Position numbers and translations under genes: made by a program. Positions 2,925 to 19,787 of a stretch of 64,000 nt of DNA are shown here, piece by piece. Within the stretch, counting starts at the first letter, position 1; each line of letters begins with the position of its first letter. Under the pieces are notes generated by a model. It made no database searches. It was not told the origin of the DNA and worked only from the letters and a program-made list of their open reading frames with translations. The stretch is from Bacteroides sp. M10. Lineage in GTDB: Bacteria > Bacteroidota > Bacteroidia > Bacteroidales > Bacteroidaceae. Location of the stretch: the NCBI RefSeq assembly GCF_014334015.1, contig NZ_CP060488.1:310001-374000 (forward strand), in the 5' to 3' direction.

Positions 2925-4055
2925 ATGCGTATGAAAGTTTATCAGAGCAAACCGAGAATAACGCTTTCACCTGCCATCCGTGACGGGCAGAAATACGTGG
3001 AAGTGGAGTTCGACGAGGACGATGCCATCCGGCTGTCGCTGTCGAAAGAGAAGGGCGTGCGGTTCGAGGGGGACAGAGCCTACCTGCCGGAAGAAGGCTT
3101 CGACCTGTCCGGCTTTTTCGACCGCCATGTGGAAACGGCGTATATCAATTACTCCGCCCTGAAAAACACCTTGCCCAAGAAGAGCGGGAAAACCAGCCCC
3201 GCCATCCCGCCCGGCTATGCCGAGACGCTGCGGCAACTGCGGTACAGCGAGCATACCGTCCGTGCGTACACTGTCTATTTCAGGGAGTTCCAGCAATACT
3301 TTGCGGGAAGAAACCTTCGCTACATCCGACCGGAAGAAATCAACGCCTACATCGTACACCTGATTGACACACGGAGGATCTCGTCGTGCCAACAGAACTT
3401 GCGCATCAACTCGATCAAGTTTTATTTCGAGAAGGTGCTGGGACAGGAACGGAAATGTTACGAGGTAAAGCGAGCCAAACGGGAACGGACGCTGCCCGAC
3501 GTGCTGAGCAAGGAGGAGATAAAATCCATCCTTGACGCAACCGGTCCGGACATCCGGCTGTTCTGCATGTTCTCGTTGCTCTACTCCGCCGGGTTGAGAA
3601 TCAGCGAGCTGCTGGACTTGAAGCCCCACGACATCAACGTGAGCCGTTCGCTGATACGGGTACGGCAGGGCAAAGGGAGGAAAGACCGCTACACGCTGCT
3701 GTCGAAGCCCCTTGTCAGGAAGCTGACCGAGTACGCCAAGCTGTACAAGCCGCAGGAATGGCTGTTCGAGCGGTACAAGGGCGAGCCGTTCACGGAGAGC
3801 ATCGTGTCGAAGAAGCTGAAAGAGGCGGCGAAGGAAGCCGGAATCACCAAGCGGGTGTACCCCCACCTGTTGCGACACTCGTTCGCCACGCATCTGATCG
3901 AGCAAGGCACGGACTTGAAAATCGTAAAAGAGCTGTTGGGGCACAACCAACTGAAAACGACGGAAATGTACGTGCATATAGCCGACACTTTCAAGAGCAG
4001 CATCCGCACTCCATTGGATGATATTCTTGAAGGTGATAATGAGATAGTTAAATAA
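2925..4055 (+). CDS. XerD-like tyrosine recombinase heading cassette array 1
   Basis: A 376-residue tyrosine recombinase, the proposed enzyme that moves the cassettes. Residues 1-90 are an unusual N-terminal extension; 95-175 form the core-binding SAM-like domain; 190-360 form the catalytic domain. Catalytic residues are visible: Arg225 in AGLRISELL, Lys in GKGRKDR (about 250-253), His314 and Arg317 in HLLRHSFATHL, His340 in LLGHNQLKTTEMY and Tyr349. The extra helix of integron integrases is not recognisable. It points into the array and is followed within 10 bp by the attI-like site. A lone XerD gene heading a run of immunity genes is the hallmark of rAID-1 clusters. ATG 2925 is used; 2931 is an in-frame alternative. 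Confidence 0.92.
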   Translation: MRMKVYQSKPRITLSPAIRDGQKYVEVEFDEDDAIRLSLSKEKGVRFEGDRAYLPEEGFDLSGFFDRHVETAYINYSALKNTLPKKSGKTSPAIPPGYAETLRQLRYSEHTVRAYTVYFREFQQYFAGRNLRYIRPEEINAYIVHLIDTRRISSCQQNLRINSIKFYFEKVLGQERKCYEVKRAKRERTLPDVLSKEEIKSILDATGPDIRLFCMFSLLYSAGLRISELLDLKPHDINVSRSLIRVRQGKGRKDRYTLLSKPLVRKLTEYAKLYKPQEWLFERYKGEPFTESIVSKKLKEAAKEAGITKRVYPHLLRHSFATHLIEQGTDLKIVKELLGHNQLKTTEMYVHIADTFKSSIRTPLDDILEGDNEIVK

Positions 4056-4092
4056 GAAAATAACAGCGAAAACCGCTGATAATTACATGTTA
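4054..4092 (+). other. attI-like primary recombination site of array 1
   Basis: The segment has a CAGCG-AAAAC-CGCTG inverted repeat followed by GATAATTACATGTTA. The last 15-18 bases recur at the heads of arrays 2 (near 48539) and 3 (near 54452). Cassette 1 begins right after the TTA. In the duplicate of cassette 1 the base before this TTA is different, which places a likely crossover at ACATG/TTA. Confidence 0.72.
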
Positions 4093-4115
4093 TCGTCATT
4101 AAAATAAAAACGAAC

Positions 4116-4703
4116 ATGGAGAAAGGAATAAAAAGAATTGAGCAGAATGGTGTTCACGTTGCATATCTTACTTGTCCTCAAATCAAATTGAACAAGTATA
4201 AAAATGCAACCATGTTATCGTTGTGGCATATTAAAGGCAACTCAATGGATTTTATTTTGGATATGCCCGAATTGCAAGATATCAGGATGTATTCGTGTAA
4301 ATTCAATGACTATACAGCATTAAACAAATTGACACATCTAAAGAGATTATGTATTAATGGTATTGCCACAAAAGAAGAGCAAACATTTGATTATATAGCC
4401 AATCTTTCTCCTTTAGAAGAACTAATCATTTGTAACATAAAACCGTTTAGCAAATTCCCCAATTTATCGAACTTACATAGTTTATATTGGTTATTTATTT
4501 GGGAATGTAAAAATTTAGTTGATATAAAAAACATTGCCGATATTCCCAATTTGCGTGTATTTGATTGGTGTTGTTCTCAATTAAAGCCTACTGAATTGGA
4601 ATTTGTAATGCAAAAAGACAGTATTCAAAAAGTTGCTGCTCAATTTGGAGGAAAGAGGTTAAATGAAGAATTTAAATCATTATTAATGAAGTACAATTTA
4701 TGA
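4116..4703 (+). CDS. Cassette 1: leucine-rich-repeat-like protein
   Basis: A 195-residue protein with irregular leucine-rich repeats (LSPLEELIICNIKPF, LSNLHSLYWLFIWECKNL, IADIPNLRVFDWC) between residues 45 and 150, and no signal peptide or membrane segment. Leucine-rich proteins are frequent in interbacterial immunity arrays, where they probably bind a toxin directly; here that is inferred from context. It is the first cassette after the recombinase and should be transcribed best if the array has only the recombinase promoter. An identical copy is cassette 19. Confidence 0.85.
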   Translation: MEKGIKRIEQNGVHVAYLTCPQIKLNKYKNATMLSLWHIKGNSMDFILDMPELQDIRMYSCKFNDYTALNKLTHLKRLCINGIATKEEQTFDYIANLSPLEELIICNIKPFSKFPNLSNLHSLYWLFIWECKNLVDIKNIADIPNLRVFDWCCSQLKPTELEFVMQKDSIQKVAAQFGGKRLNEEFKSLLMKYNL

Positions 4704-4706
4704 CGA

Positions 4707-4754
4707 TAACAAGCGGATGAATCTCCCTAACGGTCGATTATCTGCCGGACATTA
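4707..4754 (+). repeat. attC-like site 1 (type I)
   Basis: TAACAAGCGGAT at the left pairs with ATCTGCCGGACATTA at the right; inner arms AATC and GATT. The preceding bases ATGACGA mirror the first bases of cassette 1, TCGTCAT. Confidence 0.8.
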
Positions 4755-4771
4755 GCATCAAATAAAAAAGA

Positions 4772-5314: not shown

Positions 5315-5362
5315 TAACATACACCTTAATCGCCCAAAATGGCGATTAGCTGCCGAACATTA
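5315..5362 (+). repeat. attC-like site 2 (divergent hairpin)
   Basis: The inner arms TAATCGCC and GGCGATTA are a perfect 8-bp inverted repeat unrelated in sequence to the other types. The preceding GATGC mirrors the cassette start GCATC. Confidence 0.78.
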
Positions 5363-5377
5363 CCAATAAAGAAAAAT

Positions 5378-5704
5378 ATGAATGCTATCAAGTATAAACT
5401 AATTGTAGATGAACCGTGGGGCTTTACTCATAGTGGAAGTAATGTTTTTCATGGTGTAGTGGTAAAGCAACTTTCCCCTACGTTTCTTCTTTTCAAATCT
5501 GATAACTTAGTGAGTTTTGAAGGAAAAGAAAGCCATATCCTTATTTTGAAACCCAGATATGAGAAAGAGGTTTTTGATTTGGAAAGTGATGATGAAATTG
5601 TCGTAGGTGGTGCATTGTATCAGGAAAAAGAATACGAGGGTAAAGATGAAAAATATTTAATGTCACATAGTAAATATGTTGTTATTGGAAGACTAAAAAA
5701 ATAA
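5378..5704 (+). CDS. Cassette 3: small hypothetical protein
   Basis: 108 residues, not recognised. It has alternating hydrophobic residues typical of a beta-rich fold (KYKLIVDEPWGF, SPTFLLFKSD, SHILILKPRY, YVVIGRLKK) and no transmembrane stretch. The ATG at 5378 lies 15 bp after the end of attC-like site 2; an upstream in-frame start at 5339 falls inside that site and was rejected. An immunity role is inferred only from its place in the array. Confidence 0.72.
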   Translation: MNAIKYKLIVDEPWGFTHSGSNVFHGVVVKQLSPTFLLFKSDNLVSFEGKESHILILKPRYEKEVFDLESDDEIVVGGALYQEKEYEGKDEKYLMSHSKYVVIGRLKK

Positions 5705-5711
5705 ATATTGG

Positions 5712-5756
5712 TAACAATCACTTTAACAGCTAAACTCTGTTAGCTGAAACACATTA
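5712..5756 (+). repeat. attC-like site 3 (divergent hairpin)
   Basis: The inner arms CAGCTAA and TTAGCTG form a 7-bp inverted repeat; the right core is ACACATTA. The preceding TATTGG mirrors the cassette start CCAATA. Confidence 0.76.
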
Positions 5757-5763
5757 CCAATAA

Positions 5764-6099
5764 ATGAATATAATGACACAAGACATATACAATAGTATTC
5801 GAGAAATATTGCTGTGTGATGAAGATATAGATTTTTGTTGCAAACTTTTATTGAAAATAACATTTAACTGTGATGACTGGAAATGGATTCAGAACGTTTG
5901 CATTGATATTATCAACAGTAATAGAGAAAAGAATATATGTGGATTAGCAGTTACGTGTATCGGACATTTGGCTCGAATACACGGAAAAATAGAAAAAGAG
6001 AGAATCTTTGAAGTGTTTAATCAACAAAAAGATAATCCTTTCATCAATGACAGAATTGGAGATGCCATTGATGATATAGATATGTTTGTGCATGAATAA
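5764..6099 (+). CDS. Cassette 4: helical HEAT-like hypothetical protein
   Basis: 111 residues and mostly helical. The segment GLAVTCIGHLARIHGKIEKE followed by a helix ending DAIDDIDMFVHE resembles the HEAT-like small proteins often found in polymorphic-toxin immunity loci. No specific family is assigned. The start at 5764 gives MNIMTQD; the ATG at 5773 is equally possible. It lies 7 bp after the upstream recombination site, leaving almost no leader. Confidence 0.75.
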   Translation: MNIMTQDIYNSIREILLCDEDIDFCCKLLLKITFNCDDWKWIQNVCIDIINSNREKNICGLAVTCIGHLARIHGKIEKERIFEVFNQQKDNPFINDRIGDAIDDIDMFVHE

Positions 6100-6103
6100 T
6101 TGG

Positions 6104-6151
6104 TAACACACGGATAAATCTCCCCAAAGGTCGATTATCCGCCGAACATTA
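6104..6151 (+). repeat. attC-like site 4 (type I)
   Basis: CGGATAAATC on the left, GATTATCCG on the right, ending CCGAACATTA. The preceding ATTGG mirrors the cassette start CCAAT. Confidence 0.8.
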
Positions 6152-6171
6152 TCAATATTAAAATACCAAAT

Positions 6172-6699
6172 ATGCCAAGGTACACAAGAATTATAACATC
6201 ACTATCAGATTTCATCATTTTAATAGATGAAATCTTGACTAAATATGGAGCTTCTGTTTTTTTAGAAGATAAGACTAATGATGGCTTCATAAATAAACTT
6301 GTTGTAACTGACGATATAGTTCGTCTTGTGAAAAGTAATCGAGATAAAAACTTGAATTTCTTCATTACAACACTATCGTTAGAGTACGAGAATAGGTTTA
6401 ATTTCTATGATGATGCACAATGCAAGTTTGTGATAGAAGGCAGAGGTGGTAGAGAAAATGCAACAGAATTGGAAATGTTGCAATTAAGGGTTATCTCAAA
6501 AACACCGGATTGTCTTATCAATAAAATATCCAATGAGATAAATTTGAAGCTTAAAAAAGACTCTGGGTATGACAGTGAAATATTAAGAGGAAGCTATAAG
6601 GTGTTTTATAGTAAGGCATATTTGGGGAAAAAGAAATTTGTTTATGAAATAGACAATTCCCTATTGCCAATGATTGAAATAGGGAACAATGTGGATTAA
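6172..6699 (+). CDS. Cassette 5: hypothetical protein
   Basis: 175 residues, not recognised. Mixed alpha/beta, basic in the C-terminal half (NEINLKLKKDSGYDSEILRG), no signal peptide and no membrane segment. It starts 20 bp after the recombination site behind an AAAATA-rich leader, the usual Bacteroidetes arrangement without a Shine-Dalgarno sequence. Possible orphan immunity gene by context only. Confidence 0.75.
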   Translation: MPRYTRIITSLSDFIILIDEILTKYGASVFLEDKTNDGFINKLVVTDDIVRLVKSNRDKNLNFFITTLSLEYENRFNFYDDAQCKFVIEGRGGRENATELEMLQLRVISKTPDCLINKISNEINLKLKKDSGYDSEILRGSYKVFYSKAYLGKKKFVYEIDNSLLPMIEIGNNVD

Positions 6700-6710
6700 C
6701 GAAATATTGA

Positions 6711-6756
6711 TAACAAACAGCAGAACCGCTTAAAAACGGAATGCTGCCAGACATTA
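6711..6756 (+). repeat. attC-like site 5 (type II)
   Basis: Hairpin arms ACAGC and GCTG around an ACCG/CGGA inner pair. The preceding AATATTGA is the 8-bp mirror of the cassette start TCAATATT. Confidence 0.8.
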
Positions 6757-6781
6757 TCGTTGTCAACATTAGAATAAAAAA

Positions 6782-7294
6782 ATGAAAACAATAGAAGATA
6801 TGAAACTTGAATTATTGAGTGATAACTCAAATAAGTTCATGCAGACTCTAATAGATTATGACATAAAAAGTAAAGACAAATATGGCAGTAATCTACTTCA
6901 TTATTATATAATGAACTATGATAGTATTGTACATCCAGCAGGTGTGATTATATCCGAATTTATAAAAAAAGGATTGGATATAAATGATAAAAGAAAAGAC
7001 GGACGGACTGCATTATATCTTTCTGTTCAGTGTCAGCTACAAGATATTTTTGAAATACTCCTGAATAGCAATGCAGATTTGGATATACAAAATGTAAATG
7101 GGAATACTCCTTTATGGGAAGCCGTTATGCGATACCGTGGAGATGGCTTCTTTATCGAACAACTTTTGAAAAATGGGGCTAATCCCGATATAAAAAACAA
7201 CTATGGAGTATCTCCTAAATCATTGGCAAGAACTATCGCAAATTATGATGTAAGAAGATTCTTTAACAACGATAACAAACAGCAAACCGACTGA
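6782..7294 (+). CDS. Cassette 6: ankyrin-repeat protein
   Basis: 170 residues with about three ankyrin repeats: YGSNLLHYYIMNYDS, then KDGRTALYLSVQCQLQDIFEILLNS, then NGNTPLWEAVMRYRGDGFFIEQLLKNGANPDIKN. Ankyrin proteins bind other proteins and are recurrent immunity proteins beside toxins. The last residues (DNKQQTD) and the stop codon are encoded inside the following attC-like site, so the cassette relies on its own recombination site to end translation. Confidence 0.85.
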   Translation: MKTIEDMKLELLSDNSNKFMQTLIDYDIKSKDKYGSNLLHYYIMNYDSIVHPAGVIISEFIKKGLDINDKRKDGRTALYLSVQCQLQDIFEILLNSNADLDIQNVNGNTPLWEAVMRYRGDGFFIEQLLKNGANPDIKNNYGVSPKSLARTIANYDVRRFFNNDNKQQTD

Positions 7295-7319
7295 ACAAGC
7301 GGCACGCTGCCAAACATTA
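7273..7319 (+). repeat. attC-like site 6 (type II)
   Basis: ACAGC...GCTGCC arms and CCGACTGAACAAGCGG core. The preceding ACAACGA mirrors the cassette start TCGTTGT. It overlaps the 3' end of the ankyrin gene. Confidence 0.8.
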
Positions 7320-7337
7320 GTGTCATATAAAATTATA

Positions 7338-7739
7338 ATGAAACAGATAATAGAAAAAATCAATAAAAGTTGGCACTCCAATCCTCCATGTGATCAACAA
7401 ATAATGTTGAGTGTGGGAAAGTTGTTTCCATTACCCGATGATTATAAGGAATTTATGTTATGGAGTAATGGTGGAGAAGGTAATATTGGTAGTCAATATT
7501 TATCATTATGGAAGATTGAAGATTTGATGCAACTGAACAAAGAATACCAAATACAAAAGTATTTGTCGAAAAAATCTTTGGTTATTGGCACTGATGGAGG
7601 CGATAATTGTATCGGTTTTTATTTTGGAGAACCTACTTTTATTTTTTTACAACCATTAGGAGATTTAGACTTATCTGAGAATAGATTTTTATCCCAATCA
7701 TTTACAGATATGTTCATTAATTGGTTGAGAATAAGATAA
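7338..7739 (+). CDS. Cassette 7: SMI1/KNR4 (SUKH) family protein
   Basis: 133 residues. The signature is LFPLPDDYKEFMLWSNGGEG near residues 30-50, then a beta-rich core (GTDGGDNCIGFYF) and a closing helix SFTDMFINWL. This is the SUKH fold, whose members commonly neutralise nuclease and other contact-dependent toxins. The ATG at 7338 was chosen; the upstream in-frame GTG at 7320 overlaps the recombination-site border. No toxin gene accompanies it. Confidence 0.85.
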   Translation: MKQIIEKINKSWHSNPPCDQQIMLSVGKLFPLPDDYKEFMLWSNGGEGNIGSQYLSLWKIEDLMQLNKEYQIQKYLSKKSLVIGTDGGDNCIGFYFGEPTFIFLQPLGDLDLSENRFLSQSFTDMFINWLRIR

Positions 7740-7749
7740 AAAATGACAC

Positions 7750-7799
7750 TAACAAGCGGCTCAACCTCCCCTGAAAGGTCGGTTAGCCACCCAACATTA
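7750..7799 (+). repeat. attC-like site 7 (type I variant)
   Basis: CGGCTCAACC on the left and GGTTAGCC on the right: the changes relative to other type I sites keep the pairing. The preceding ATGACAC mirrors the cassette start GTGTCAT. Confidence 0.8.
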
Positions 7800-7815
7800 T
7801 CTGCCCATAAAAAGA

Positions 7816-8814
7816 ATGAATATGAAAATAGAATTAGAAAATTGTCAAAAAAGTCTTACTCTCAAAGATTTTGAAGAAGTTGAGAGCAAGTTGGGTCATG
7901 TTTTGCCGGAAAGACTGAAAGAGTTCTATTTACAATATAATGGAGGAGAACCTAAACAGCAAACCATCTCCATAAACAAATATTACGAAGTGGAAATTAG
8001 AATTTTCCAACCGTTCAAATATAATAAGAGTTTTAAGAATGCTCTTTTTCATACTGTTGAAGGAGAAACCTTGGAGCATCGTAGTTCTAATTCGATTTCT
8101 GACAATATTCTGCTATTTGCCAGTGGACATAACAATTTGAGAAATATTGGTGTAATTGCAATCAATATAAAAAACAGAGCTGTATATTTTTATAAAATTA
8201 TTGGTTTTGTAAAAAATAGCGATGCATTTATTTTTGATGAACCTCAATTGATAGCGGATTCAATAGATGATTTTTTCAATAATCTCGTTGCTTTCCCAAA
8301 AATCGAAGAGGAACAACAAACGGAGATTATAGAAATAGAAGGTGTAATGCCTGAACTTTCGGACTGTTCGGCTTCGCTAACAAAAGAAGATATAAAGAAT
8401 TTTGAGGTTGAGTTGAATGTAAAGATTCCGGCAGGCATGAAGAACTTTTACCTCAAGTTCAACGGTGGTATGCCATCACCATATTGTTTTCAACCGCAGG
8501 ACGAGGATTTGGATTGGGTGGAGATAAATGCGTTCTTTCCGATAAAGGAACGCACCAATGCTTTTGAAACAATTGAAGTCATAGCCAAAGACATGTGGAG
8601 CAGAAATCTAATGCCAAGCAACCTGTTGCCTTTTGCTATGGATTCGGGTGGAAACTATTATGCGTTGAACTTGAAGAATAAAAAGATTTACTATTACTTG
8701 ACTGACGAGTGGGACGAAAACGCTTCAAGAGAATACAACTTTGAAACAAATACTCGTTACATCGCCCAGTCATTCAATTACTTTATAAATCATTTTATCG
8801 AAGAAGAGGAATAA
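7816..8814 (+). CDS. Cassette 8: tandem two-domain SUKH protein
   Basis: 332 residues with two SMI1/KNR4 domains. Domain 1 (about 1-160) has LPERLKEFYLQYNGGEP; domain 2 (about 175-330) has IPAGMKNFYLKFNGGMPSP, each followed by a beta core and a helix before the end. A short Glu-rich linker joins them. Cassette 15 is a paralog with a nearly identical second domain and a divergent first domain. The cassette start TCTGCCC is shared with cassettes 15 and 27. Confidence 0.85.
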   Translation: MNMKIELENCQKSLTLKDFEEVESKLGHVLPERLKEFYLQYNGGEPKQQTISINKYYEVEIRIFQPFKYNKSFKNALFHTVEGETLEHRSSNSISDNILLFASGHNNLRNIGVIAINIKNRAVYFYKIIGFVKNSDAFIFDEPQLIADSIDDFFNNLVAFPKIEEEQQTEIIEIEGVMPELSDCSASLTKEDIKNFEVELNVKIPAGMKNFYLKFNGGMPSPYCFQPQDEDLDWVEINAFFPIKERTNAFETIEVIAKDMWSRNLMPSNLLPFAMDSGGNYYALNLKNKKIYYYLTDEWDENASREYNFETNTRYIAQSFNYFINHFIEEEE

Positions 8815-8824
8815 AGCGGGCAGA

Positions 8825-8872
8825 TAACAAGCGGATCAATCTCCTTTAATGATGATTATCCACCAAACATTA
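8825..8872 (+). repeat. attC-like site 8 (type I)
   Basis: CGGATCAATC...GATTATCCACC; right core AAACATTA. The preceding GGGCAGA mirrors the cassette start TCTGCCC. Confidence 0.8.
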
Positions 8873-8896
8873 GCAATTGACGAAAAAAAGAAAGCA

Positions 8897-9331
8897 ATGA
8901 GTGAAATTATAGAATACCGTCCAATTAATGAGGACGAACGAATAGAAATAGATCAGCTTGCGGCTAAAGGTTTAGTCCTTATAGGTTTGCAGGAAAGTGC
9001 TGAATCCTCTGCCATCCTTGATGGCATAAAGAACTATCTCAATAATTTTGAAAGTTCAGATGACGAGGAAATTACGGATAGGGCTTATGAGTTAGGTTCC
9101 CTGTTAGGAAACACCATCCAAAAGCACTATGGATGGAACTGGTTTTGTGTAGAGGAAAATACAGATGATTCTTTTCATTGTGTTGCTTCTAATAAAGAAC
9201 GAGCCTGCTGCGCCTGTCATGAATATATATACTCCATATTGACAAAACAGCATTCCAATAATGTAAAGTTGTTGTTCAATATGATAAAGAAGGACTATCC
9301 TAAAGAATGGCACTTCATGTTGCTTTCTTAA
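8897..9331 (+). CDS. Cassette 9: DUF3806-like hypothetical protein
   Basis: 144 residues. The centre (YELGSLLGNTIQKHYGWNWF, then SFHCVASNKE) resembles DUF3806-type proteins, small predicted immunity proteins in which a helix pair is followed by a Trp-containing strand; this is a weak call. There is a CCACH motif near residue 105 but no clear metal site. The ATG at 8897 was selected because the longer in-frame start at 8849 lies inside the recombination site. Confidence 0.72.
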   Translation: MSEIIEYRPINEDERIEIDQLAAKGLVLIGLQESAESSAILDGIKNYLNNFESSDDEEITDRAYELGSLLGNTIQKHYGWNWFCVEENTDDSFHCVASNKERACCACHEYIYSILTKQHSNNVKLLFNMIKKDYPKEWHFMLLS

Positions 9332-9339
9332 AAGATTGC

Positions 9340-9385
9340 TAACAAACAGATGAAACATTTAAGGCAGTTTATCTGCTAAACATTA
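9340..9385 (+). repeat. attC-like site 9 (type III)
   Basis: Arms CAGATGAAAC and GTTTATCTG form a third hairpin sequence class. The preceding ATTGC mirrors the cassette start GCAAT. Confidence 0.78.
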
Positions 9386-9422
9386 GCAATAAAATGTAAA
9401 ATGAATAAAATACCATTCAATT

Positions 9423-9857: not shown

Positions 9858-9866
9858 AAATATTGC

Positions 9867-9914
9867 TAACAAGTAGATAAGCAACCCGAACAGGTTACTA
9901 TCTACATCCCATTA
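9867..9914 (+). repeat. attC-like site 10 (divergent hairpin)
   Basis: GTAGATA with AACC on the left pairs with GGTT and TATCTAC on the right. The right core is CCCATTA rather than AACATTA. The preceding TATTGC mirrors the cassette start GCAATA. Confidence 0.75.
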
Positions 9915-13499: not shown

Positions 13500-13509
13500 A
13501 GCGGGCAGA

Positions 13510-13557
13510 TAACAAGCGGATCAATCTCCTTTAATGATGATTATCCACCGAACATTA
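13510..13557 (+). repeat. attC-like site 15 (type I)
   Basis: Almost identical to site 8, differing in the right arm (CACCGAAC versus CACCAAAC). The preceding GGGCAGA mirrors the cassette start TCTGCCC. Confidence 0.8.
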
Positions 13558-13570
13558 TTCGCAAAAACAA

Positions 13571-14194
13571 ATGGAAGAAAAAAACTATATATCAAACTTT
13601 GATTGCTCGCTTTGGCAAATTGATGATTGGGGACTATATACAGCCAAATCTCCTATCTATATCAATTCTTTGGGCAGCGATTTTAATGTGTGGTTTGATG
13701 TGGACGGCGAGAGTTTTCCTACCGACAAACAGCTTGTTGCATGGGCGGGATTTTGCAATATTAATTCAAATGAAATAAAAGAAATGATGATTGACGGTCT
13801 TACAAAGTTAGTAGATAAAATGGATGTCTTGCCAAATGATGTAGAGCCGGAATTTGGTCCGATATATAGACCTATGGCGATTTCGAGAAATGCCAAACGC
13901 TCTATTGAAGCTGTAAGACATAGTAGAAAGACATTAGGTAAAGTGGCAAAATCCACCTTAAAATGCAATTCGGTTGTTGTACCGTTACAAGATAAAGCTC
14001 CAGTTAGATTTATTGTAATGAACTTTGAAATTGGTCGTCGCCCTTATGAAATGGAAGCTGTTTTTTGTAATGAAAAGATGCTTATGGTCGGTGAAAACTC
14101 TGGCATTTGGACTCGCCTTGAATGGATAAATGAGTTTAATGTTCCAATGTTTAATATTGGAACGGCATTACATCCATATTGGCGACCCGAATAA
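13571..14194 (+). CDS. Cassette 16: hypothetical protein
   Basis: 207 residues, not recognised. Several Trp-containing strands (LWQIDDWGLYTAKSP, DFNVWFDVDG) are followed by a basic helix (AISRNAKRSIEAVRHSRKTL) and a late beta part (VRFIVMNFEIGRRPYEMEAV). No membrane segment. It begins 14 bp after the upstream recombination site. Confidence 0.75.
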   Translation: MEEKNYISNFDCSLWQIDDWGLYTAKSPIYINSLGSDFNVWFDVDGESFPTDKQLVAWAGFCNINSNEIKEMMIDGLTKLVDKMDVLPNDVEPEFGPIYRPMAISRNAKRSIEAVRHSRKTLGKVAKSTLKCNSVVVPLQDKAPVRFIVMNFEIGRRPYEMEAVFCNEKMLMVGENSGIWTRLEWINEFNVPMFNIGTALHPYWRPE

Positions 14195-14202
14195 TATGCG
14201 AA

Positions 14203-14248
14203 TAACATGCACCTGTTCCGCCTAACGGCGGCAAGCTGCAAACCATTA
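14203..14248 (+). repeat. attC-like site 16 (divergent hairpin)
   Basis: CCGCC-TAA-CGGCGG inner hairpin; right core AACCATTA. The preceding TGCGAA mirrors the cassette start TTCGCA. Confidence 0.76.
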
Positions 14249-14278
14249 GTCGCTTGAAAAAATAAAAGAAAAAAGAAT

Positions 14279-14860
14279 ATGAGTGCGTTTACAGAAATAA
14301 AGAAATACATTCAGACTTTTGAAAAGTATGGATGTAAAGAATATGAAAACGGGACAAAAGAATATGGTCATGCACCTTTCATTGCTCCTGAAGCATATAA
14401 TTTTTGCGTCTTTGCTACGCTAAATGAAGATGATATTGTTGAGTTAGAGCGAGATTTGAAAAGAGAGATTCCGGCTCAATTCCGCTCGTTTTTAATGACT
14501 GATTCCAATGGCTTACATCTTTTCTTCCATTTCAGTTTGTATGGAATGAGAAAATCATATAATCGAAATCCAAACGCGACTCCAGAGCCTTATGGCTTAA
14601 TTGAGTCAAACATTTACGAAAGACCTAAAAACGCAAAAGATACTTATTTTTTCATTGGAGGATATAGATATGATGGCTCAAAGCTCTATATAGATTCTGA
14701 AAATGGAAAGGTTCATTTCTGTAAAAGTAGAGATGCTACCTCTCTCTTGTCATGGGATTCTTTTGAAGATATGCTCATATCAGAATCCCAAAGACTATTT
14801 ACGCTTTACGATGATAGAGGTAGAATGCTTGTGTCAAGAGAAAAAACACTACCGATATAG
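14279..14860 (+). CDS. Cassette 17: SUKH-like protein
   Basis: 193 residues. SMI1/KNR4-type motif LERDLKREIPAQFRSFLMTD near 60-80, then a beta core (YFFIGGYRYDGSKLYIDSEN) and the end helix SWDSFEDMLISESQRL. The N-terminal 55 residues are extra relative to the minimal fold. Inferred orphan immunity protein. Confidence 0.82.
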   Translation: MSAFTEIKKYIQTFEKYGCKEYENGTKEYGHAPFIAPEAYNFCVFATLNEDDIVELERDLKREIPAQFRSFLMTDSNGLHLFFHFSLYGMRKSYNRNPNATPEPYGLIESNIYERPKNAKDTYFFIGGYRYDGSKLYIDSENGKVHFCKSRDATSLLSWDSFEDMLISESQRLFTLYDDRGRMLVSREKTLPI

Positions 14861-14870
14861 AATAAGCGAC

Positions 14871-14915
14871 TAACAAACAGCAAACCGACTAAAAGCGGAA
14901 CGCTGCCAAACATTA
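14871..14915 (+). repeat. attC-like site 17 (type II)
   Basis: ACAGC...GCTGCC with CCGACTAAAAGCGG core. The preceding AGCGAC mirrors the cassette start GTCGCT. Confidence 0.8.
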
Positions 14916-14933
14916 GCCACCGAGGAAATAAAT

Positions 14934-15338
14934 ATGAAAAAGGAACTTATAGAACGATTGAGAAGATTTCTAACGGCACATGATATGATTGGGACACCTG
15001 CATCTGATGAGCAGGTATTATGTGCGGAACAAGAGTTAGGAGTAAAATTTAGTTCTGACTATATAGACTTTATCAAGAATTTCGGAACAGCATACGCAGG
15101 AATGATGATTAATGCTTTAGACGGCAATGAAAATGTGGTCGAAGAAACTAAATCATTAAGAGAAGTTCATCCTGAAGTTACAGATACTTATGTGATTTCA
15201 GATGATGGTTCTGGCAATCCCATAATGATAAATTCTAAAGGAGAGGTCGAAATATACTATCATGATAGTGATGCCGAAATAAAAACCATCGCTCCATCGT
15301 TAGAACAATATATAGAAGATAATTTTCCTGAATGGTAA
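14934..15338 (+). CDS. Cassette 18: SUKH family protein
   Basis: 134 residues, a minimal SMI1/KNR4 domain: EQELGVKFSSDYIDFIKNFG, then TYVISDDGSGNPIMINSKGE and the final helix SLEQYIEDNFPEW. It is the one cassette besides 20 whose ends are clearly not complementary (starts GCCACC, ends GGTTGC), which suggests the ends have been exchanged or mutated. Confidence 0.85.
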   Translation: MKKELIERLRRFLTAHDMIGTPASDEQVLCAEQELGVKFSSDYIDFIKNFGTAYAGMMINALDGNENVVEETKSLREVHPEVTDTYVISDDGSGNPIMINSKGEVEIYYHDSDAEIKTIAPSLEQYIEDNFPEW

Positions 15339-15348
15339 AAGCGGTTGC

Positions 15349-15394
15349 TAACAAACAGATGAAACATTGAAGGCGGTTTATCTGCCGGACATTA
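15349..15394 (+). repeat. attC-like site 18 (type III)
   Basis: CAGATGAAAC...GTTTATCTG arms; right core GGACATTA. The preceding bases GGTTGC do not mirror the cassette start GCCACC. Confidence 0.75.
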
Positions 15395-15417
15395 TCGTCA
15401 TTAAAATAAAAACGAAC

Positions 15418-16005
15418 ATGGAGAAAGGAATAAAAAGAATTGAGCAGAATGGTGTTCACGTTGCATATCTTACTTGTCCTCAAATCAAATTGAACAAGTA
15501 TAAAAATGCAACCATGTTATCGTTGTGGCATATTAAAGGCAACTCAATGGATTTTATTTTGGATATGCCCGAATTGCAAGATATCAGGATGTATTCGTGT
15601 AAATTCAATGACTATACAGCATTAAACAAATTGACACATCTAAAGAGATTATGTATTAATGGTATTGCCACAAAAGAAGAGCAAACATTTGATTATATAG
15701 CCAATCTTTCTCCTTTAGAAGAACTAATCATTTGTAACATAAAACCGTTTAGCAAATTCCCCAATTTATCGAACTTACATAGTTTATATTGGTTATTTAT
15801 TTGGGAATGTAAAAATTTAGTTGATATAAAAAACATTGCCGATATTCCCAATTTGCGTGTATTTGATTGGTGTTGTTCTCAATTAAAGCCTACTGAATTG
15901 GAATTTGTAATGCAAAAAGACAGTATTCAAAAAGTTGCTGCTCAATTTGGAGGAAAGAGGTTAAATGAAGAATTTAAATCATTATTAATGAAGTACAATT
16001 TATGA
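15418..16005 (+). CDS. Cassette 19: leucine-rich-repeat-like protein, exact copy of cassette 1
   Basis: 195 residues, identical in sequence to the cassette 1 product. The duplicated DNA runs from the TTA of the upstream recombination site to the end of the downstream one and no further, so the copied unit is a whole cassette. Its presence at two distant positions indicates recent cassette movement or re-insertion rather than tandem slippage. Confidence 0.87.
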   Translation: MEKGIKRIEQNGVHVAYLTCPQIKLNKYKNATMLSLWHIKGNSMDFILDMPELQDIRMYSCKFNDYTALNKLTHLKRLCINGIATKEEQTFDYIANLSPLEELIICNIKPFSKFPNLSNLHSLYWLFIWECKNLVDIKNIADIPNLRVFDWCCSQLKPTELEFVMQKDSIQKVAAQFGGKRLNEEFKSLLMKYNL

Positions 16006-16008
16006 CGA

Positions 16009-16056
16009 TAACAAGCGGATGAATCTCCCTAACGGTCGATTATCTGCCGGACATTA
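16009..16056 (+). repeat. attC-like site 19 (type I, identical to site 1)
   Basis: Same sequence as site 1, including the mirrored ATGACGA before it; identity stops two bases after the final ATTA. Confidence 0.82.
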
Positions 16057-16079
16057 GCCACTTAAAAATAATAATAAAA

Positions 16080-16940
16080 ATGACACATAACGAAGCCATA
16101 GAACTATTGTTGAAAGAGTACACTTCTTCTGACAAGAAGCGGCTTACTGAGCTATTCATACAAACCTTGCCAATAGGTCGGATTCATTTTGGGCTTCAAG
16201 TTTTGTCGAAAATGAAAACATATTATGTTCATTCATATTCAATATACGACATTCCTAAAACAGGTGATTTTTACAAAGACGAGAGGTTGTGGATAAAAGA
16301 AAATAAAAAACTATTCTTAGAAAGAAAATACCTCTCCTTTGAGAATATGACCGTAGAACAACAAAGAGAAATTATGGATGAACCTACAATAAACTCTTGT
16401 TATATTTGTTCGTCTTCCTTTGAGAAAGATATTGAAAAATATCCATTCAATCCCAAATATGGGGTGAATGAATCTGATGTTTTTCACATGGTACAATGCT
16501 TACAGCAAGAGAATAGGGAAAGTGTGAATTTCCTGTATGATCCCAAACAACAAAAGGAAGGGCTGAGTATTCTTAAAGAAATCTTTGAGACTATCACATC
16601 CGTGCAGGAATCAGACGGGATTCGTTATGTGTACAAATTGTTGAAGAAAAAAGAATTTTTCAAGCATTGGAAGAAAGAGGAAAAGCGTATAAGTGTTAAG
16701 TTTGCAGAATTAGCTTTACAACGTCTGTTGGAAATAATGGGATACCTTAGTATTCTCCACACTGAAAAATATAGAGGTTCCTTTTATGAGTTTAATGAAG
16801 GATGTACTCCAAGAAGCAGCCGAAGTTCTGATTGGAATTACCCAGTGGATTTTTGGAGAGGCAAAAACGGCATTGATAAGATAGCTTTTCAGTATTGGTT
16901 TGGAGAGTATGATGAACTTGAAAAATTCTGGAAACAATAG
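16080..16940 (+). CDS. Cassette 20: hypothetical protein
   Basis: 286 residues, among the largest cassette products, and not recognised. Mostly helical and charged (KKKEFFKHWKKEEKRISVKF), with a Cys pair in NSCYICSSSF but no zinc-finger pattern and no membrane segment. Its ends (start GCCACT, end AGCGAC) are only partly complementary. It could be a defence effector rather than an immunity protein; nothing in the sequence decides this. Confidence 0.75.
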   Translation: MTHNEAIELLLKEYTSSDKKRLTELFIQTLPIGRIHFGLQVLSKMKTYYVHSYSIYDIPKTGDFYKDERLWIKENKKLFLERKYLSFENMTVEQQREIMDEPTINSCYICSSSFEKDIEKYPFNPKYGVNESDVFHMVQCLQQENRESVNFLYDPKQQKEGLSILKEIFETITSVQESDGIRYVYKLLKKKEFFKHWKKEEKRISVKFAELALQRLLEIMGYLSILHTEKYRGSFYEFNEGCTPRSSRSSDWNYPVDFWRGKNGIDKIAFQYWFGEYDELEKFWKQ

Positions 16941-16946
16941 AGCGAC

Positions 16947-16993
16947 TAACAAACGGATTAATCTACCAACAGCCGATTATCCACCTAACATTA
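16947..16993 (+). repeat. attC-like site 20 (type I variant)
   Basis: CGGATTAATC...GATTATCCACC with a changed loop; right core CTAACATTA. Confidence 0.76.
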
Positions 16994-17004
16994 TCAACTT
17001 ATTA

Positions 17005-17466
17005 ATGAATAAAATGAAAAAAGACAAACATATAAAAGTGCTATTCCACTTGGAACAAGATGAAGATGGCTATCCACCATTTTCTATTGAAGGTTTGTGG
17101 TGCAAAAAGGCAAGTAATGATACCTATATTGTCGATAATGTGCCATTCTATACCTATGGAATCAGTTTGGGGGATGAGATATGTGTTACAGAAGAAGATG
17201 GCGAATATCATTTTCAATCCATAGTGAATCCCTCTGGAAATAGCACATTGAGGGTACATTTTAACGATAAACGTATGCAGATGGTCAGAGACAAACTACT
17301 TGATATGGGATGCAAGGTAGAGATTTCTAATCTCTCTTCATTCGTATCCATAAATGTACCACAAGAAGTTTCCTTAAAAGTGGTCGAAGATGTTCTGACC
17401 AATATGCAAAAAGAATGTGATAGTTTGGCTTATGAACATGGTGTTGTCAGACAAAATATAAGTTGA
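17005..17466 (+). CDS. Cassette 21: DUF4265 family protein
   Basis: 153 residues. The DUF4265 pattern is clear: VLFHLEQDEDGYPPFSIEGLW, then NVPFYTYGISLGDEICVTEE and the late ferredoxin-like half NSTLRVHFNDKRMQMVRDKL. The family is frequent in immunity arrays; activity unknown. The stop TGA overlaps the left end of the following recombination site. ATG 17005 is used; 17014 is possible. Confidence 0.86.
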   Translation: MNKMKKDKHIKVLFHLEQDEDGYPPFSIEGLWCKKASNDTYIVDNVPFYTYGISLGDEICVTEEDGEYHFQSIVNPSGNSTLRVHFNDKRMQMVRDKLLDMGCKVEISNLSSFVSINVPQEVSLKVVEDVLTNMQKECDSLAYEHGVVRQNIS

Positions 17467-17513
17467 TAACAAACAGCAGACCGACTGAATAAGCGGAACG
17501 CTGCCGAACATTA
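17467..17513 (+). repeat. attC-like site 21 (type II)
   Basis: ACAGCAGACCG...CGGAACGCTGCC; the preceding AAGTTGA mirrors the cassette start TCAACTT. The stop codon of cassette 21 ends at its border. Confidence 0.8.
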
Positions 17514-17539
17514 TAAACTCTGGATATAAGGATGAATGT

Positions 17540-18031
17540 ATGAATAATCAATATGCAGTTTTAATAAGTAGTGAAATCCCTGAACTTGGAGAATTGGACT
17601 TACTGCGCTCAATTTACCGAGAGTTGAATGGTTATATGGAAGATTACAATAACCAAATCAACTTAGATGATTTGGGAGATTGGAAACTTCTCATACAGAT
17701 AAATCTTCGAAATACTAATGGGGGGATTGGGATTTTCAAACGGGCAAAACGTTTCCCATCTAATAAAGAGTTTGAAATATCTATTTCCATACCAGTACCA
17801 AATTTGGAGGAAGCACGCTATGGAATATCCGATATGACGGGGATTTATATTCCTTTAAATATTAAAAACTTCTACATTCTTTCTCCATGCTTTAGTAAAT
17901 ATGATAATTTGTATCATTATATTCTTGAGAGTGCAAAACAAACCATAGATGCAGCTTTTACTTATGGCTTTACATGTAACGGCAAAAGAATAAAGAAAAA
18001 AGAGTTTATAACAAACAGCACTACCGACTGA
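17540..18031 (+). CDS. Cassette 22: hypothetical protein, possibly Imm9-like
   Basis: 163 residues. The N-terminal strand YAVLISSEIPELGELDLLRS and the middle KEFEISISIPVPNLEEARYG vaguely resemble Imm9-type immunity proteins; the match is weak. The last residues (ITNSTTD) and the stop codon are encoded inside the recombination site, so the C-terminus would change if the cassette were recombined in another register. Confidence 0.75.
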   Translation: MNNQYAVLISSEIPELGELDLLRSIYRELNGYMEDYNNQINLDDLGDWKLLIQINLRNTNGGIGIFKRAKRFPSNKEFEISISIPVPNLEEARYGISDMTGIYIPLNIKNFYILSPCFSKYDNLYHYILESAKQTIDAAFTYGFTCNGKRIKKKEFITNSTTD

Positions 18032-18057
18032 ATAAGGCGGAACGCTGCAAACCATTA
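18009..18057 (+). repeat. attC-like site 22 (type II)
   Basis: ACAGC...GCTGC arms and CCGACTGAATAAGGCGG; right core AACCATTA. The preceding AGAGTTTA is an 8-bp mirror of the cassette start TAAACTCT. Confidence 0.8.
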
Positions 18058-18066
18058 GTAATAAAT

Positions 18067-18573
18067 ATGAAATCTGAATTTCACAGTGTTATAAATGAAT
18101 TTCAACGTTTACTCAATGAGTATAACTTTAAGTGCCCTAAGAAATTATGGTATGATGATCTTATATGTTTAAGTAAACATATCATTGATATATATTATTG
18201 TTATATAATAGCACGAGTATATAAACATAATGGCTCATTAGAAGTAACAATGTGGGTTGGTGTCATTGATCGTCCGGATGATGGGCTTGAAAATCTGTCA
18301 GCAAACATTAAGATCCAGATTGGATATAACCAAACCTGCGATGAAACTTTTTTCAAAGAATGCGAAGGTAAAATAGTCAATATTATTGAAAGCGGCAGTT
18401 TGGTTAATTTAATTAATGTGTCTCAAATAGAAATGAAGACACCTTCTTTTCATAATGGGCGATATGAGGTGTTTACCTTATATCTCATGCCGTTTTATAA
18501 GATGGTCTTGGAACAGGCTAATTACAATAAGAAGATACTAAACAGTAAAAAAAAACTGCCGGGTTATTATTGA
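18067..18573 (+). CDS. Cassette 23: hypothetical protein
   Basis: 168 residues, not recognised. It has an N-terminal helix (VINEFQRLLNEYNFKCPKKL), a Tyr-rich strand (IIDIYYCYIIARVYK) and a long beta-containing middle. The overall layout is similar to cassettes 22 and 25, which may form a loose family. Unusually for this array, the stop is followed by about 120 bp of non-coding DNA before the recombination site, opening with a perfect palindrome. Confidence 0.74.
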   Translation: MKSEFHSVINEFQRLLNEYNFKCPKKLWYDDLICLSKHIIDIYYCYIIARVYKHNGSLEVTMWVGVIDRPDDGLENLSANIKIQIGYNQTCDETFFKECEGKIVNIIESGSLVNLINVSQIEMKTPSFHNGRYEVFTLYLMPFYKMVLEQANYNKKILNSKKKLPGYY

Positions 18574-18593
18574 AAATATTTTCAATAATAACC
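18562..18593. repeat. Perfect 32-bp palindrome
   Basis: GGTTATTATTGAAAAT followed directly by its exact reverse complement. It overlaps the stop codon of cassette 23. It could be a terminator stem (no T-tract follows) or a protein-binding site. Confidence 0.7.
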
Positions 18594-18695
18594 TATCAGG
18601 GGAAATGAAAATGTTCTTTGATAAACTTGGGCTAAATTCCACTATTGACATAATTTGGGAGTTATGTTACATTTATTCTCTGTGAAATATATTAC
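18594..18695. other. Non-coding tail of cassette 23
   Basis: About 100 bp between the palindrome and the recombination site. A 26-codon frame from ATG 18605 (MKMFFDKLGLNSTIDIIWEL then CYIYSL) is present but unsupported and may be a gene remnant. Confidence 0.4.
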
Positions 18696-18743
18696 TAACA
18701 AGGTCGATATAACAGCTAAACGCTGTCCCTCACCAACCCATTA
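18696..18743 (+). repeat. attC-like site 23 (divergent hairpin)
   Basis: ACAGC-TAAAC-GCTGT inner inverted repeat; right core ACCCATTA. The preceding TATTAC mirrors the cassette start GTAATA. Confidence 0.76.
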
Positions 18744-18763
18744 TAAACTCGTAAAATAAAAAT

Positions 18764-19258
18764 ATGATTGAAGCACTGAAAAATATAGGATTCGTCGTTA
18801 CAGAACGATTGGAAAGAAAAGAATTAAGCTCTGATTTACAAAATCGGTACTCCGAACTTCCTGCGGACTATCAGGAGTTTTTACAACGGTTTCAGACAAT
18901 CACGAATGAAAGTGATAATGTTTGGTTTAATTCCATAGAGGATTTTAACGGAGAAAGCGATAGTGGATTCCGTTGGAATGAATTTGAGCTGATGGGACTT
19001 GAGGCGTTGGCAGATGATAAGGAATCCTGTGATATGATACGCCTGTTTTGGGATAGCCATATTCCTATTCTTATGTCAGTAAAAGATGGATACCAATATT
19101 TGTGCATAGATTTATCTCCGGAAAATTACGGTAAAATCTATTATGGAGTTGAACCTGAATTTGAAGATTCGGCAGAATTTGTTTGCGATAGCTTCAATCA
19201 TTTATTGGAAATGTTGTCTTCCAATAAAAAGAATGATATACTGACAAATTTCAAATAG
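18764..19258 (+). CDS. Cassette 24: SUKH family protein (paralog of cassette 12)
   Basis: 164 residues, the same protein as cassette 12 except Val for Ile at residue 10. Several silent changes are visible in the gene, and the downstream recombination sites differ at a few bases, so this duplication is older than that of cassettes 1 and 19. Both copies share the cassette start TAAACTCG and its mirrored end. Confidence 0.85.
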   Translation: MIEALKNIGFVVTERLERKELSSDLQNRYSELPADYQEFLQRFQTITNESDNVWFNSIEDFNGESDSGFRWNEFELMGLEALADDKESCDMIRLFWDSHIPILMSVKDGYQYLCIDLSPENYGKIYYGVEPEFEDSAEFVCDSFNHLLEMLSSNKKNDILTNFK

Positions 19259-19263
19259 GTTTA

Positions 19264-19312
19264 TAACAAGCAGATAAATCTCTCTGAAAGATTGATTGTC
19301 CGCCAAACATTA
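19264..19312 (+). repeat. attC-like site 24 (type I)
   Basis: Differs from site 12 by GTCCGCCAAAC in place of ATCCACCGAAC in the right arm. The preceding GTTTA mirrors TAAAC. Confidence 0.78.
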
Positions 19313-19331
19313 CTAACGATAACAAATTTGT

Positions 19332-19715
19332 ATGAAAGTTTTTATTGGAGGTGAATTGGAACATAGTATTTCTGATAAGTTTCGTAAAGCAAGAAACTCT
19401 GTAATAGAATATATGGATTGTCTATGTGATATTTCATATATTAATGAACTAAGTTTCTATGTATTCTGCTTAAAAGGATTTACTGCAAATCCATTAAGTA
19501 GATATTCGAAAAAACGTAATCGGATAGAATTGGAAATTCTACTCCCATTTGATAAATTTGAAACAGCAAATGATTCTCAATGCGTTGAGATATTGAAACA
19601 AAGTATTCTTGATGCTATTGAGAACTATAAAAATAAAAACATTCCACAACAATATATTGATGTAATTGTAGAAAAAATGAAAGCATCAATTAATGAATTC
19701 GTTAGTAACAAATAG
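19332..19715 (+). CDS. Cassette 25: Imm44-like protein
   Basis: 127 residues. The opening MKVFIGGELEHSISDKFRKA and the segment RNRIELEILLPFDKFE are reminiscent of the Imm44 immunity family (moderate confidence, from memory). The stop codon is inside the truncated recombination site that follows. It is the last complete cassette of array 1. Confidence 0.76.
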   Translation: MKVFIGGELEHSISDKFRKARNSVIEYMDCLCDISYINELSFYVFCLKGFTANPLSRYSKKRNRIELEILLPFDKFETANDSQCVEILKQSILDAIENYKNKNIPQQYIDVIVEKMKASINEFVSNK

Positions 19716-19738
19716 CACTACTGCTTAAAGCGGAACGA
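19706..19738 (+). repeat. Truncated attC-like site 25
   Basis: Left half of a type II site (TAACAAATAGC...AAGCGGAAC), broken before the GCTGCC arm and ACATTA core. The preceding GTTAG mirrors the cassette start CTAAC. The break after GCGGAAC is at the same place as in site 36. Confidence 0.75.
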
Positions 19739-19787
19739 TGATGATGTTTCGGCTTCTGCCGTGAAATGGAAATTAGCCGATATGTAA
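19737..19787 (+). pseudogene. C-terminal remnant of a cassette-2 relative
   Basis: The frame reads DDDVSASAVKWKLADM and a stop. This matches the last 16 residues of the cassette 2 product with one change. It is joined directly to the broken recombination site, so a deletion has removed the right half of that site and most of a further cassette, ending array 1. Confidence 0.82.

What the first reader, a model, noticed from the sequence alone, without database searches (positions are those of the whole stretch)
2925..19787. Integron-like immunity-gene cassette array run by a XerD-type recombinase
A tyrosine recombinase gene, an attI-like site and 25 one-gene cassettes, each closed by a 45-50 bp site starting TAACAA and ending ACATTA. 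The cassette content looks like immunity genes without toxins. The gene context matches known rAID-1 clusters; the integron-like site architecture goes beyond ordinary descriptions of immunity islands. The recombinase lacks recognisable IntI features, which suggests convergent evolution of a cassette system.
Basis: partly seen in the sequence, partly recalled or inferred. Interest (0 to 1): 0.95.

Follow-up and report, generated by a model that had tools for sequence, protein, structure and literature searches.

The report
Integron-like capture array for immunity genes
A mobile DNA element of the kind found in gut Bacteroidales carries 25 one-gene units, many of them predicted to neutralise rival bacteria's toxins, whose exact borders and shuffled orders in relatives show that they move as cassettes, likely driven by a neighbouring recombinase that lacks the hallmark insertion of classical integron enzymes.

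Summary
After a tyrosine recombinase (2925-4055) lie an attI-like site (4061-4092) and 25 co-oriented cassettes, closed by 24 full sites (45-50 bp) and one truncated site. The first 8-12 nt of a cassette are the reverse complement of its own last nt in 23 of 25 cassettes (mean run 9.0, against 3.65 between different cassettes; 0 of 100,000 permutations). 20 of 25 cassettes recur (93% identity or more), in other orders, in 8 other arrays. Where neighbours differ, identity stops at or next to a TTA trinucleotide. Six loci with nearly the same recombinase share one attI-like sequence up to G|TTA and carry six different first cassettes. Sites are predicted to fold into hairpins with a one-sided 1-nt bulge.

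The locus is a rAID (recombinase-associated immunity array), a known kind. New here: integron-like exchange mapped to the base, with a recombinase below the IntI cut-off, without the IntI insertion, and grouping outside IntI and Xer in the best tree. Related recombinases border cassette arrays in five other Bacteroidota families. Recombination itself, circular cassettes and single-strand substrates are inferred, not shown.

The parts
2925..4055 (+). tyrosine recombinase, 376 aa, RKHRHY catalytic residues (R225 K250 H314 R317 H340 Y349), about 95-aa N-terminal extension
4061..4092 (+). attI-like insertion site TAACAGCGAAAACCGCTGATAATTACATG|TTA
   Evidence: identical in 6 loci with 6 different first cassettes
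4090..4751 (+). cassette C1 (LRR protein 4116-4703), site 4707-4754; duplicate of C19
4752..5359 (+). cassette C2 (ORF 4772-5293, no Pfam match), site 5315-5362
5360..5753 (+). cassette C3 (ORF 5378-5704, no Pfam match), site 5712-5756
5754..6148 (+). cassette C4 (ORF 5764-6099, no Pfam match), site 6104-6151
6149..6753 (+). cassette C5 (ORF 6172-6699, no Pfam match), site 6711-6756
6754..7316 (+). cassette C6 (ankyrin repeats 6782-7294), site 7273-7319
7317..7796 (+). cassette C7 (SUKH 7338-7739), site 7750-7799
7797..8869 (+). cassette C8 (two SUKH stretches 7816-8814), site 8825-8872
8870..9382 (+). cassette C9 (ORF 8897-9331, no Pfam match), site 9340-9385
9383..9911 (+). cassette C10 (ORF 9423-9857, no Pfam match), site 9867-9914
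9912..10517 (+). cassette C11 (DUF4303 9929-10465), site 10475-10520
10518..11086 (+). cassette C12 (SUKH 10541-11035), site 11041-11089; near-duplicate of C24
11087..11706 (+). cassette C13 (SUKH 11108-11647), site 11661-11709
11707..12484 (+). cassette C14 (Imm19 11734-12429), site 12439-12487
12485..13554 (+). cassette C15 (two SUKH stretches 12504-13499), site 13510-13557
13555..14245 (+). cassette C16 (ORF 13571-14194, no Pfam match), site 14203-14248
14246..14912 (+). cassette C17 (SUKH 14279-14860), site 14871-14915
14913..15391 (+). cassette C18 (SUKH 14934-15338), site 15349-15394; arm run only 5
15392..16053 (+). cassette C19 (LRR protein 15418-16005), site 16009-16056
16054..16990 (+). 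cassette C20 (ORF 16080-16940, no Pfam match), site 16947-16993; arm run only 4
16991..17510 (+). cassette C21 (DUF4265 17005-17466), site 17467-17513
17511..18054 (+). cassette C22 (Imm9 17540-18031), site 18009-18057
18055..18740 (+). cassette C23 (Imm25 18067-18573), site 18696-18743
18741..19309 (+). cassette C24 (SUKH 18764-19258), site 19264-19312
19310..19737 (+). cassette C25 (Imm44 19332-19715) with truncated site from 19706; arm run 10

Best explanation
This is an immunity-gene cassette array of the rAID kind that likely works as an integron: its recombinase would excise single-gene cassettes as circles and insert them at the adjacent attI-like site. Shown directly: cassette borders, sites, cassette-specific self-complementary ends, shuffled orders and duplicates, and a crossover region confined to the few bases around the TTA at each junction. 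Inferred: that the neighbouring recombinase does this; that a cassette leaves as a circle in which its two ends pair into an 8-9 bp outer stem; that one strand of that site folds into an attC-like hairpin which the recombinase reads by shape; that cassettes have no promoter of their own and are read from upstream; and that the proteins neutralise toxins delivered by neighbours (shown by others for some rAID genes, PMC12247911). The recombinase belongs to a group that in the best tree is separate from IntI and that borders cassette arrays in several Bacteroidota families.
For: Own-end complementarity: 23 of 25 window cassettes with a run of 8 or more. From 15 loci parsed, 14 gave cassettes: 187 in all (window C1-C24 included, C25 not), 117 distinct, run of 8 or more in 90 of 117, against 1.7% between cassettes. 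Arm positions 4-8 are Watson-Crick in 106-109 of 117, against 35-59 expected, falling to expectation by position 11. Near base-exact exchange: 118 copy pairs with different right neighbours lose identity exactly after TTA in 66 and within 6 bases of its first T in 115; 117 pairs with different left neighbours lose it within 5 bases left of TTA in 104. Homologous recombination inside a 47-bp site would scatter these points. attI: 6 loci, one sequence up to G|TTA, 6 first cassettes; a second attI ending AACG|TTA in 5 loci carries 4 different first cassettes. 20 of 25 window cassettes have a copy of 93% or more in another array. Hairpins: 127 distinct sites, mean z -2.11, z below -1 in 98, above +1 in 0; of 104 with a single hairpin, a 1-nt bulge on the 5' arm in 66 and on the 3' arm in 6. 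Circle junctions fold better than array junctions in 121 of 133. Catalytic residues intact. Foldseek best match 2a3v, an integron integrase (E 1.0e-15), with XerA 5hxy next (1.3e-15).
Against: No recombination was observed and no circular cassette was sought in reads. 23 of 127 sites do not fold as one hairpin, and in 53 of 133 circle junctions the best fold pairs fewer than 9 of the 12 outer positions. C18 and C20 have broken arms. Among 22 pairs of related but distinct cassettes, 14 keep the same arms and only 1 of 9 differing positions is compensated on both sides, so pairing is seen across unrelated cassettes rather than as compensatory change within lineages. The site differs between copies in 42 of 118 pairs with a changed right neighbour. 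The IntI insertion is missing; a paper on tyrosine recombinases calls it essential for integron function, though not fully conserved in the integron-like subgroup (PMC8138268, passages). My site finder used arm matches in scoring, which favours matched arms in the other arrays; the window sites were found by motif alone.
Confidence: 0.85

Rival explanations
1. Cassettes are reshuffled by ordinary homologous recombination between the similar 47-bp sites and between copies of cassettes; the recombinase only moves the larger element.
For: The sites are alike (mean column identity 64%), duplicates exist (C1/C19), and the block C17-C25 is shared whole with P. gordonii L142.
Against: Breakpoints fall at or next to TTA, not along the site, and the site is identical in 76 of 118 pairs with a changed right neighbour; attI and the cassettes that follow it share only TTA across the 6 loci.
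Confidence: 0.08
2. Double-strand, Xer/dif-like module exchange: the recombinase acts on short duplex core sites around TTA, and the hairpin is irrelevant to recombination (for example an mRNA feature).
For: The recombinase is as close to XerA (139 bits) as to IntI4 (134 bits); it lacks the IntI insertion; crossover mapping does not tell duplex from folded strand.
Against: Site sequence varies while a hairpin with a one-sided bulge is kept in most sites; each cassette's ends match each other rather than a common core sequence, which a fixed duplex binding site would not need.
Confidence: 0.2
3. The array is a static immunity island whose matched ends are mRNA 5'-3' pairing or terminator features.
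For: Arms lie near the ends of each gene; genes are co-oriented (24 of 24).
Against: Orders differ between loci and first cassettes differ in 6 of 6 loci with nearly the same recombinase; the matched ends are centred on the mapped crossover.
Confidence: 0.03
4. A true integron whose IntI has merely diverged and lost its insertion.
For: TIGR02249 scores 204 bits; the AU test does not reject rAID and IntI as one clade (p 0.193); a true IntI integron (L198) shows the same cassette-specific ends and a TAACAAGCG site start.
Against: Below the IntI cut-off of 265; the best tree puts it in a 54-row group outside IntI (97/87).
Confidence: 0.2

Closest known systems
rAID (recombinase-associated acquired interbacterial defence) of Bacteroidales
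   Same: Tyrosine recombinase followed by co-oriented short, low-GC orphan immunity genes with conserved intergenic motifs (PMC12247911, passages); the recombinase in B. fragilis Q1F2 (L007) is 75% identical.
   Different: [quoted passage not shown] the words integron, attC and cassette do not occur in that paper's main text. The founding paper (Nature 2019, recalled) is not held, and I could not check whether it draws the integron comparison.
Integrons (IntI, attI, attC), sedentary and mobile
   Same: Array of single-gene cassettes, insertion beside the recombinase gene at G|TT, attC-like predicted hairpin with a one-sided extra base, cassette ends complementary to each other (also seen in the true IntI integron L198).
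   Different: Recombinase below the IntI cut-off and without the insertion; sites short (TAAC to TTA median 47 nt; attC 57-141 bp by PMC3053210, passages, measured between slightly wider end points); array junctions read A|TTA rather than G|TTRRRY; the recombinase gene reads in the same direction as the array.
Xer/dif modules (pdif modules of Acinetobacter plasmids; recalled, not looked up)
   Same: Tyrosine recombinase sites flank single genes or small modules.
   Different: Those use host XerC/XerD and a fixed duplex site of about 28 bp; here each cassette has its own matched ends and the array has a dedicated recombinase gene.

Membership tests
rAID | tyrosine recombinase upstream of two or more co-directional genes below 41% GC | tested here: met
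   24 of 24 forward; array GC 0.34 over the whole stretch, not per gene; definition from PMC12247911
rAID | conserved intergenic motifs | tested here: met
rAID | recombinase homologous to the B. fragilis reference recombinase | tested here: inconclusive
   75% to B. fragilis Q1F2; the protein of the reference strain NCTC 9343 was not compared
rAID | immunity gene content | tested here: met
   SUKH 8 and Imm 4 of 25 by Pfam
Integron | IntI integrase above the curated cut-off | tested here: not met
   TIGR02249 204 bits, cut-off 265
Integron | IntI-specific insertion in the catalytic domain | tested here: not met
   58 residues between R255 and H314 in 7 of 7 rAID recombinases, 100 in 10 of 10 IntI; the insertion is said not to be fully conserved in the integron-like subgroup (PMC8138268)
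Integron | attI site next to the recombinase gene | tested here: met
   (by comparison of loci; insertion not observed)
Integron | attC: RYYYAAC...GTTRRRY | tested here: inconclusive
   NNNTAAC...ATTANNN in the array, G|TTA at attI
Integron | folded site with extra base on one side | tested here: met
   predicted only; 66 against 6 of 104 single-hairpin sites, 23 further sites branch
Integron | circular cassette and strand-specific recombination | not testable with these tools
   needs an experiment or reads
XerC/XerD | curated equivalog cut-offs | tested here: not met
   XerC 188 bits (cut-off 335), XerD 185 bits (cut-off 330)

The most novel reading that the evidence does not exclude
Bacteroidota hold a second lineage of integrons, run by recombinases without the IntI insertion, from arrays of 47-nt sites with immunity genes in Bacteroidales to arrays of 50-130-nt sites in Prolixibacteraceae, Cyclobacteriaceae, Flavobacteriaceae, Sphingobacteriaceae and Saprospiraceae. 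Cassette pools are shared between at least two recombinase types. Because the outer stem pairs only when a cassette's own ends meet, a free cassette folds into a full site while a resident one, facing a stranger's end, does not: a capture ratchet that would let arrays grow.
Probability: 0.4. Interest if true: 0.93.

Novelty: new variant of a known kind. Interest (0 to 1): 0.8.

Why it matters
rAID arrays protect gut bacteria from type VI secretion toxins, and the mechanism by which they arise is called an area of active research (PMC12247911, passages). Here the border, insertion point and likely substrate are given nearly to the base, so circle PCR and an attI assay become direct tests. If the recombinase acts on folded single strands without the IntI insertion, the stated requirement for integron recombination has to be revised, and integrons in Bacteroidota would be far commoner than a survey based on IntI reports (IntegronFinder 2.0 names one complete integron in Bacteroidetes proper, in Salinibacter ruber, beside those of Chlorobi and Ignavibacteriae; PMC9024848, passages).

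Tried and rejected
Loose chain detection of arrays in distant loci gave about as much in shuffled sequence as in real sequence and was dropped; stricter versions are. A pattern for a Bacteroides-type promoter found none between 2600 and 4120 and 5 in the array, all at positions inside ORFs: not informative. Compensatory change within related cassettes was tested and is weak (1 of 9 positions). Viral contigs gave one distant relative only (22%) and phage records none at E 1e-40. Cassette content outside Bacteroidales is mixed: of 10 cassette ORFs scanned, one SUKH, one Cass2 integron-associated protein, one esterase, three DUFs, four without a match, so immunity content is not a mark of the wider group. 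Literature searches for rAID or Bacteroidetes together with integron, attC or cassettes; none of the listings showed a paper describing rAID as an integron, but the founding paper is not held.
Full report
1. What is there. The window holds a tyrosine recombinase gene (2925-4055), an attI-like site (4061-4092) and 25 cassettes up to about 19737. Array GC is 0.34 against 0.55 in the recombinase gene and 0.54-0.60 in the flanks. The flanks look like a conjugative element: DUF3945/DUF4099 upstream, TraG-type coupling protein and YWFCY downstream. The site motif search gave 26 raw matches; two were dropped (a 56-nt overlapping match at 7264 and a match inside a gene at 12707).

2. Cassette ends. 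The first bases of each cassette, starting at the TTA of the previous site, are the reverse complement of that cassette's own last bases ending in TAA of its own TAAC. Runs are 8 or more in 23 of 25 cassettes; C18 (5) and C20 (4) are the exceptions. Between different cassettes a run of 8 or more occurs in 15 of 600 ordered pairs, and in 2 of 24 neighbouring pairs as they stand in the array. No permutation of 100,000 reached the observed sum (an earlier run, misplaced the C25 end by two bases and so scored C25 as 0). Over 117 distinct cassettes from 14 loci, arm positions 4 to 8 are Watson-Crick paired in 106-109 cassettes with three or four pair types in use at each, position 9 in 83, position 10 in 55 (34 expected), and positions 11 onward near the expected rate. 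The arm is therefore mostly 8-9 bp including TTA.

3. Where exchange happens. Cassettes of 95% or more identity form 36 groups with more than one copy (106 copies). In 117 copy pairs with different left neighbours, identity ends at 0 bases left of TTA in 12 (the base before TTA differs, as at attI), at 2-5 bases in 92, further in 13. In 118 pairs with different right neighbours it ends right after TTA in 66, at 4-6 bases in 49, further in 3; a few bases beyond TTA are what two unrelated cassettes can share by chance. The site itself is identical in 76 of those 118 pairs. The attI-like sequence is the same up to ACATG|TTA in the window, L131, L132, L113, L142 and L003/L111, each with a different first cassette; a second type ends AACG|TTA in L134, L136, L137, L138 and L139 (L136 and L139 share the first cassette), and L135 has something else there. 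The window shares C17-C24 with P. gordonii L142 in the same order at 99.8-100% and C25 with the flank at 100%, while the proximal parts differ in order and content. This is the polarity expected of insertion next to the recombinase, but L136 and L139 share proximal and differ in distal cassettes, so deletion or block exchange also occurs.

4. The folded site. With DNA parameters, 127 distinct sites have a mean z of -2.11 against 60 dinucleotide shuffles each (98 below -1, none above +1). Of these, 104 fold as one hairpin in the circular junction, 23 branch. A single-base bulge sits on the 5' arm in 66 and on the 3' arm in 6. The common plan is: outer arm, unequal internal loop, short stem, one bulged base on the left, inner stem, loop. 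This resembles the attC plan in the papers of which I saw passages (inverted repeats, extrahelical bases on one side, unpaired spacer, variable end; PMC8946536; PMC3053210); those name two extrahelical bases, here one is clear. Junctions built from a cassette's own ends have mean energy -10.2, against -6.5 for junctions as they stand in arrays and -6.6 with a random cassette's start; own is lower than array in 121 of 133. In 80 of 133 the best fold pairs at least 9 of the 12 outer positions.

5. The recombinase. NCBIfam: XerA_Arch 215 (cut-off 220), integron integrase 204 (265), XerC 188 (335), XerD 185 (330). PDB by sequence: XerA 139 bits, IntI4 134 in two pieces with chain residues 186-241 unmatched. 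Between R255 and H314 there are 58 residues in 7 of 7 rAID-type recombinases, 59-66 in 10 Xer, 100 in 10 of 10 IntI. In a tree of 74 proteins, IntI (10 rows), Xer (10) and rAID (7) are each one clade at bootstrap 100; rAID lies in a 54-row group separate from IntI and Xer (97/87), and this group joins IntI against Xer at 100/99. Holding rAID and its nearest pair with IntI is not rejected (AU p 0.193). An AlphaFold model (mean pLDDT 81.8, pTM 0.53, 28 sequences) has a separate small N-terminal alpha/beta domain and best matches 2a3v in Foldseek, with XerA close behind; with that pTM, domain placement is unsure.

6. How far it reaches. At E 1e-110 to 1e-115 the recombinase was found in 3 of 123 genomes of one family and 10 of 399 of another. 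A second type, 45-47% identical, heads arrays of mostly 44-48-nt sites; in a P. distasonis and a B. ovatus record these hold genes annotated SMI1/KNR4, Imm26, PoNi-like and Tdi1-type immunity. Five of 31 of its cassettes, as parsed, are 100% identical to cassettes in rAID arrays; all five lie in one block shared by L145 and L136, and one of them is also in L139. Further out, a chain detector with 10 controls flagged 21 of 75 loci; 3 are rAID, 5 are clear (L004 Prolixibacteraceae, L021 Cyclobacteriaceae, L054 Saprospiraceae, L059 Flavobacteriaceae, L077 Sphingobacteriaceae; at least 5 chained cassettes, sites about 50-130 nt), the other 13 are weak and many look like chance (sequences). The remaining 54 loci showed nothing above controls. 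L054 sits on a long branch. As a comparator, of 10 true IntI loci fetched, 3 exceeded controls, of which L194 and L198 look real: runs 8-11 and 6-11. Cassette-specific matched ends are thus shared with true integrons.

7. Reading. The locus is an rAID by content and layout and behaves like an integron in the comparative tests of borders, insertion point, shuffling and site folding. It fails the integron test on the integrase. I therefore file it as an rAID with integron-like cassette exchange, not as an integron. Mechanism steps shown: borders, crossover region, attI, shuffling. Inferred: recombinase identity, circle, folded strand, lack of cassette promoters (TTA to ATG is a median of 23 nt in the window and 25 over 183 cassettes), protective function.

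8. Novelty. [quoted passage not shown] The 2019 paper that named rAID-1 is not in the library; I recall only that its abstract speaks of a structure suggestive of active gene acquisition. A prior integron comparison there is likely enough that I do not claim the analogy itself as new.

Noticed in passing
window 21431-23786, minus strand: A group II intron (two Rfam matches; reverse transcriptase with maturase domain) lies between the TraG-type coupling protein piece and the YWFCY protein of the element.
   Followed up: partly
window 19706-19790: The last site of the array is cut short and followed by what reads like the 3' remnant of a C2-like gene; the same end is present in P. gordonii L142 at 100% identity.
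   Followed up: partly
L135, just after the recombinase gene: The attI-like site continues with GTTCAAGAC instead of GTTA and an unlike stretch, as if another element had inserted at attI.
   Followed up: no
L007 10001-11105: The recombinase of B. fragilis Q1F2 gave no single open frame over the matched stretch in my ORF script; left as it is.
   Followed up: no
L059 1336-1812 (minus): A cassette of a Flavobacterium covae array encodes a Cass2 (integron-associated effector-binding) domain protein.
   Followed up: no
L132 1345-2000: A near-identical recombinase is followed by what reads as a single cassette, resembling one in L138 by its ends and site, whose site ends CATCA instead of CATTA.
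   Followed up: partly
window 43402-45114: A ParB-type protein is encoded on the same stretch of DNA.
   Followed up: no
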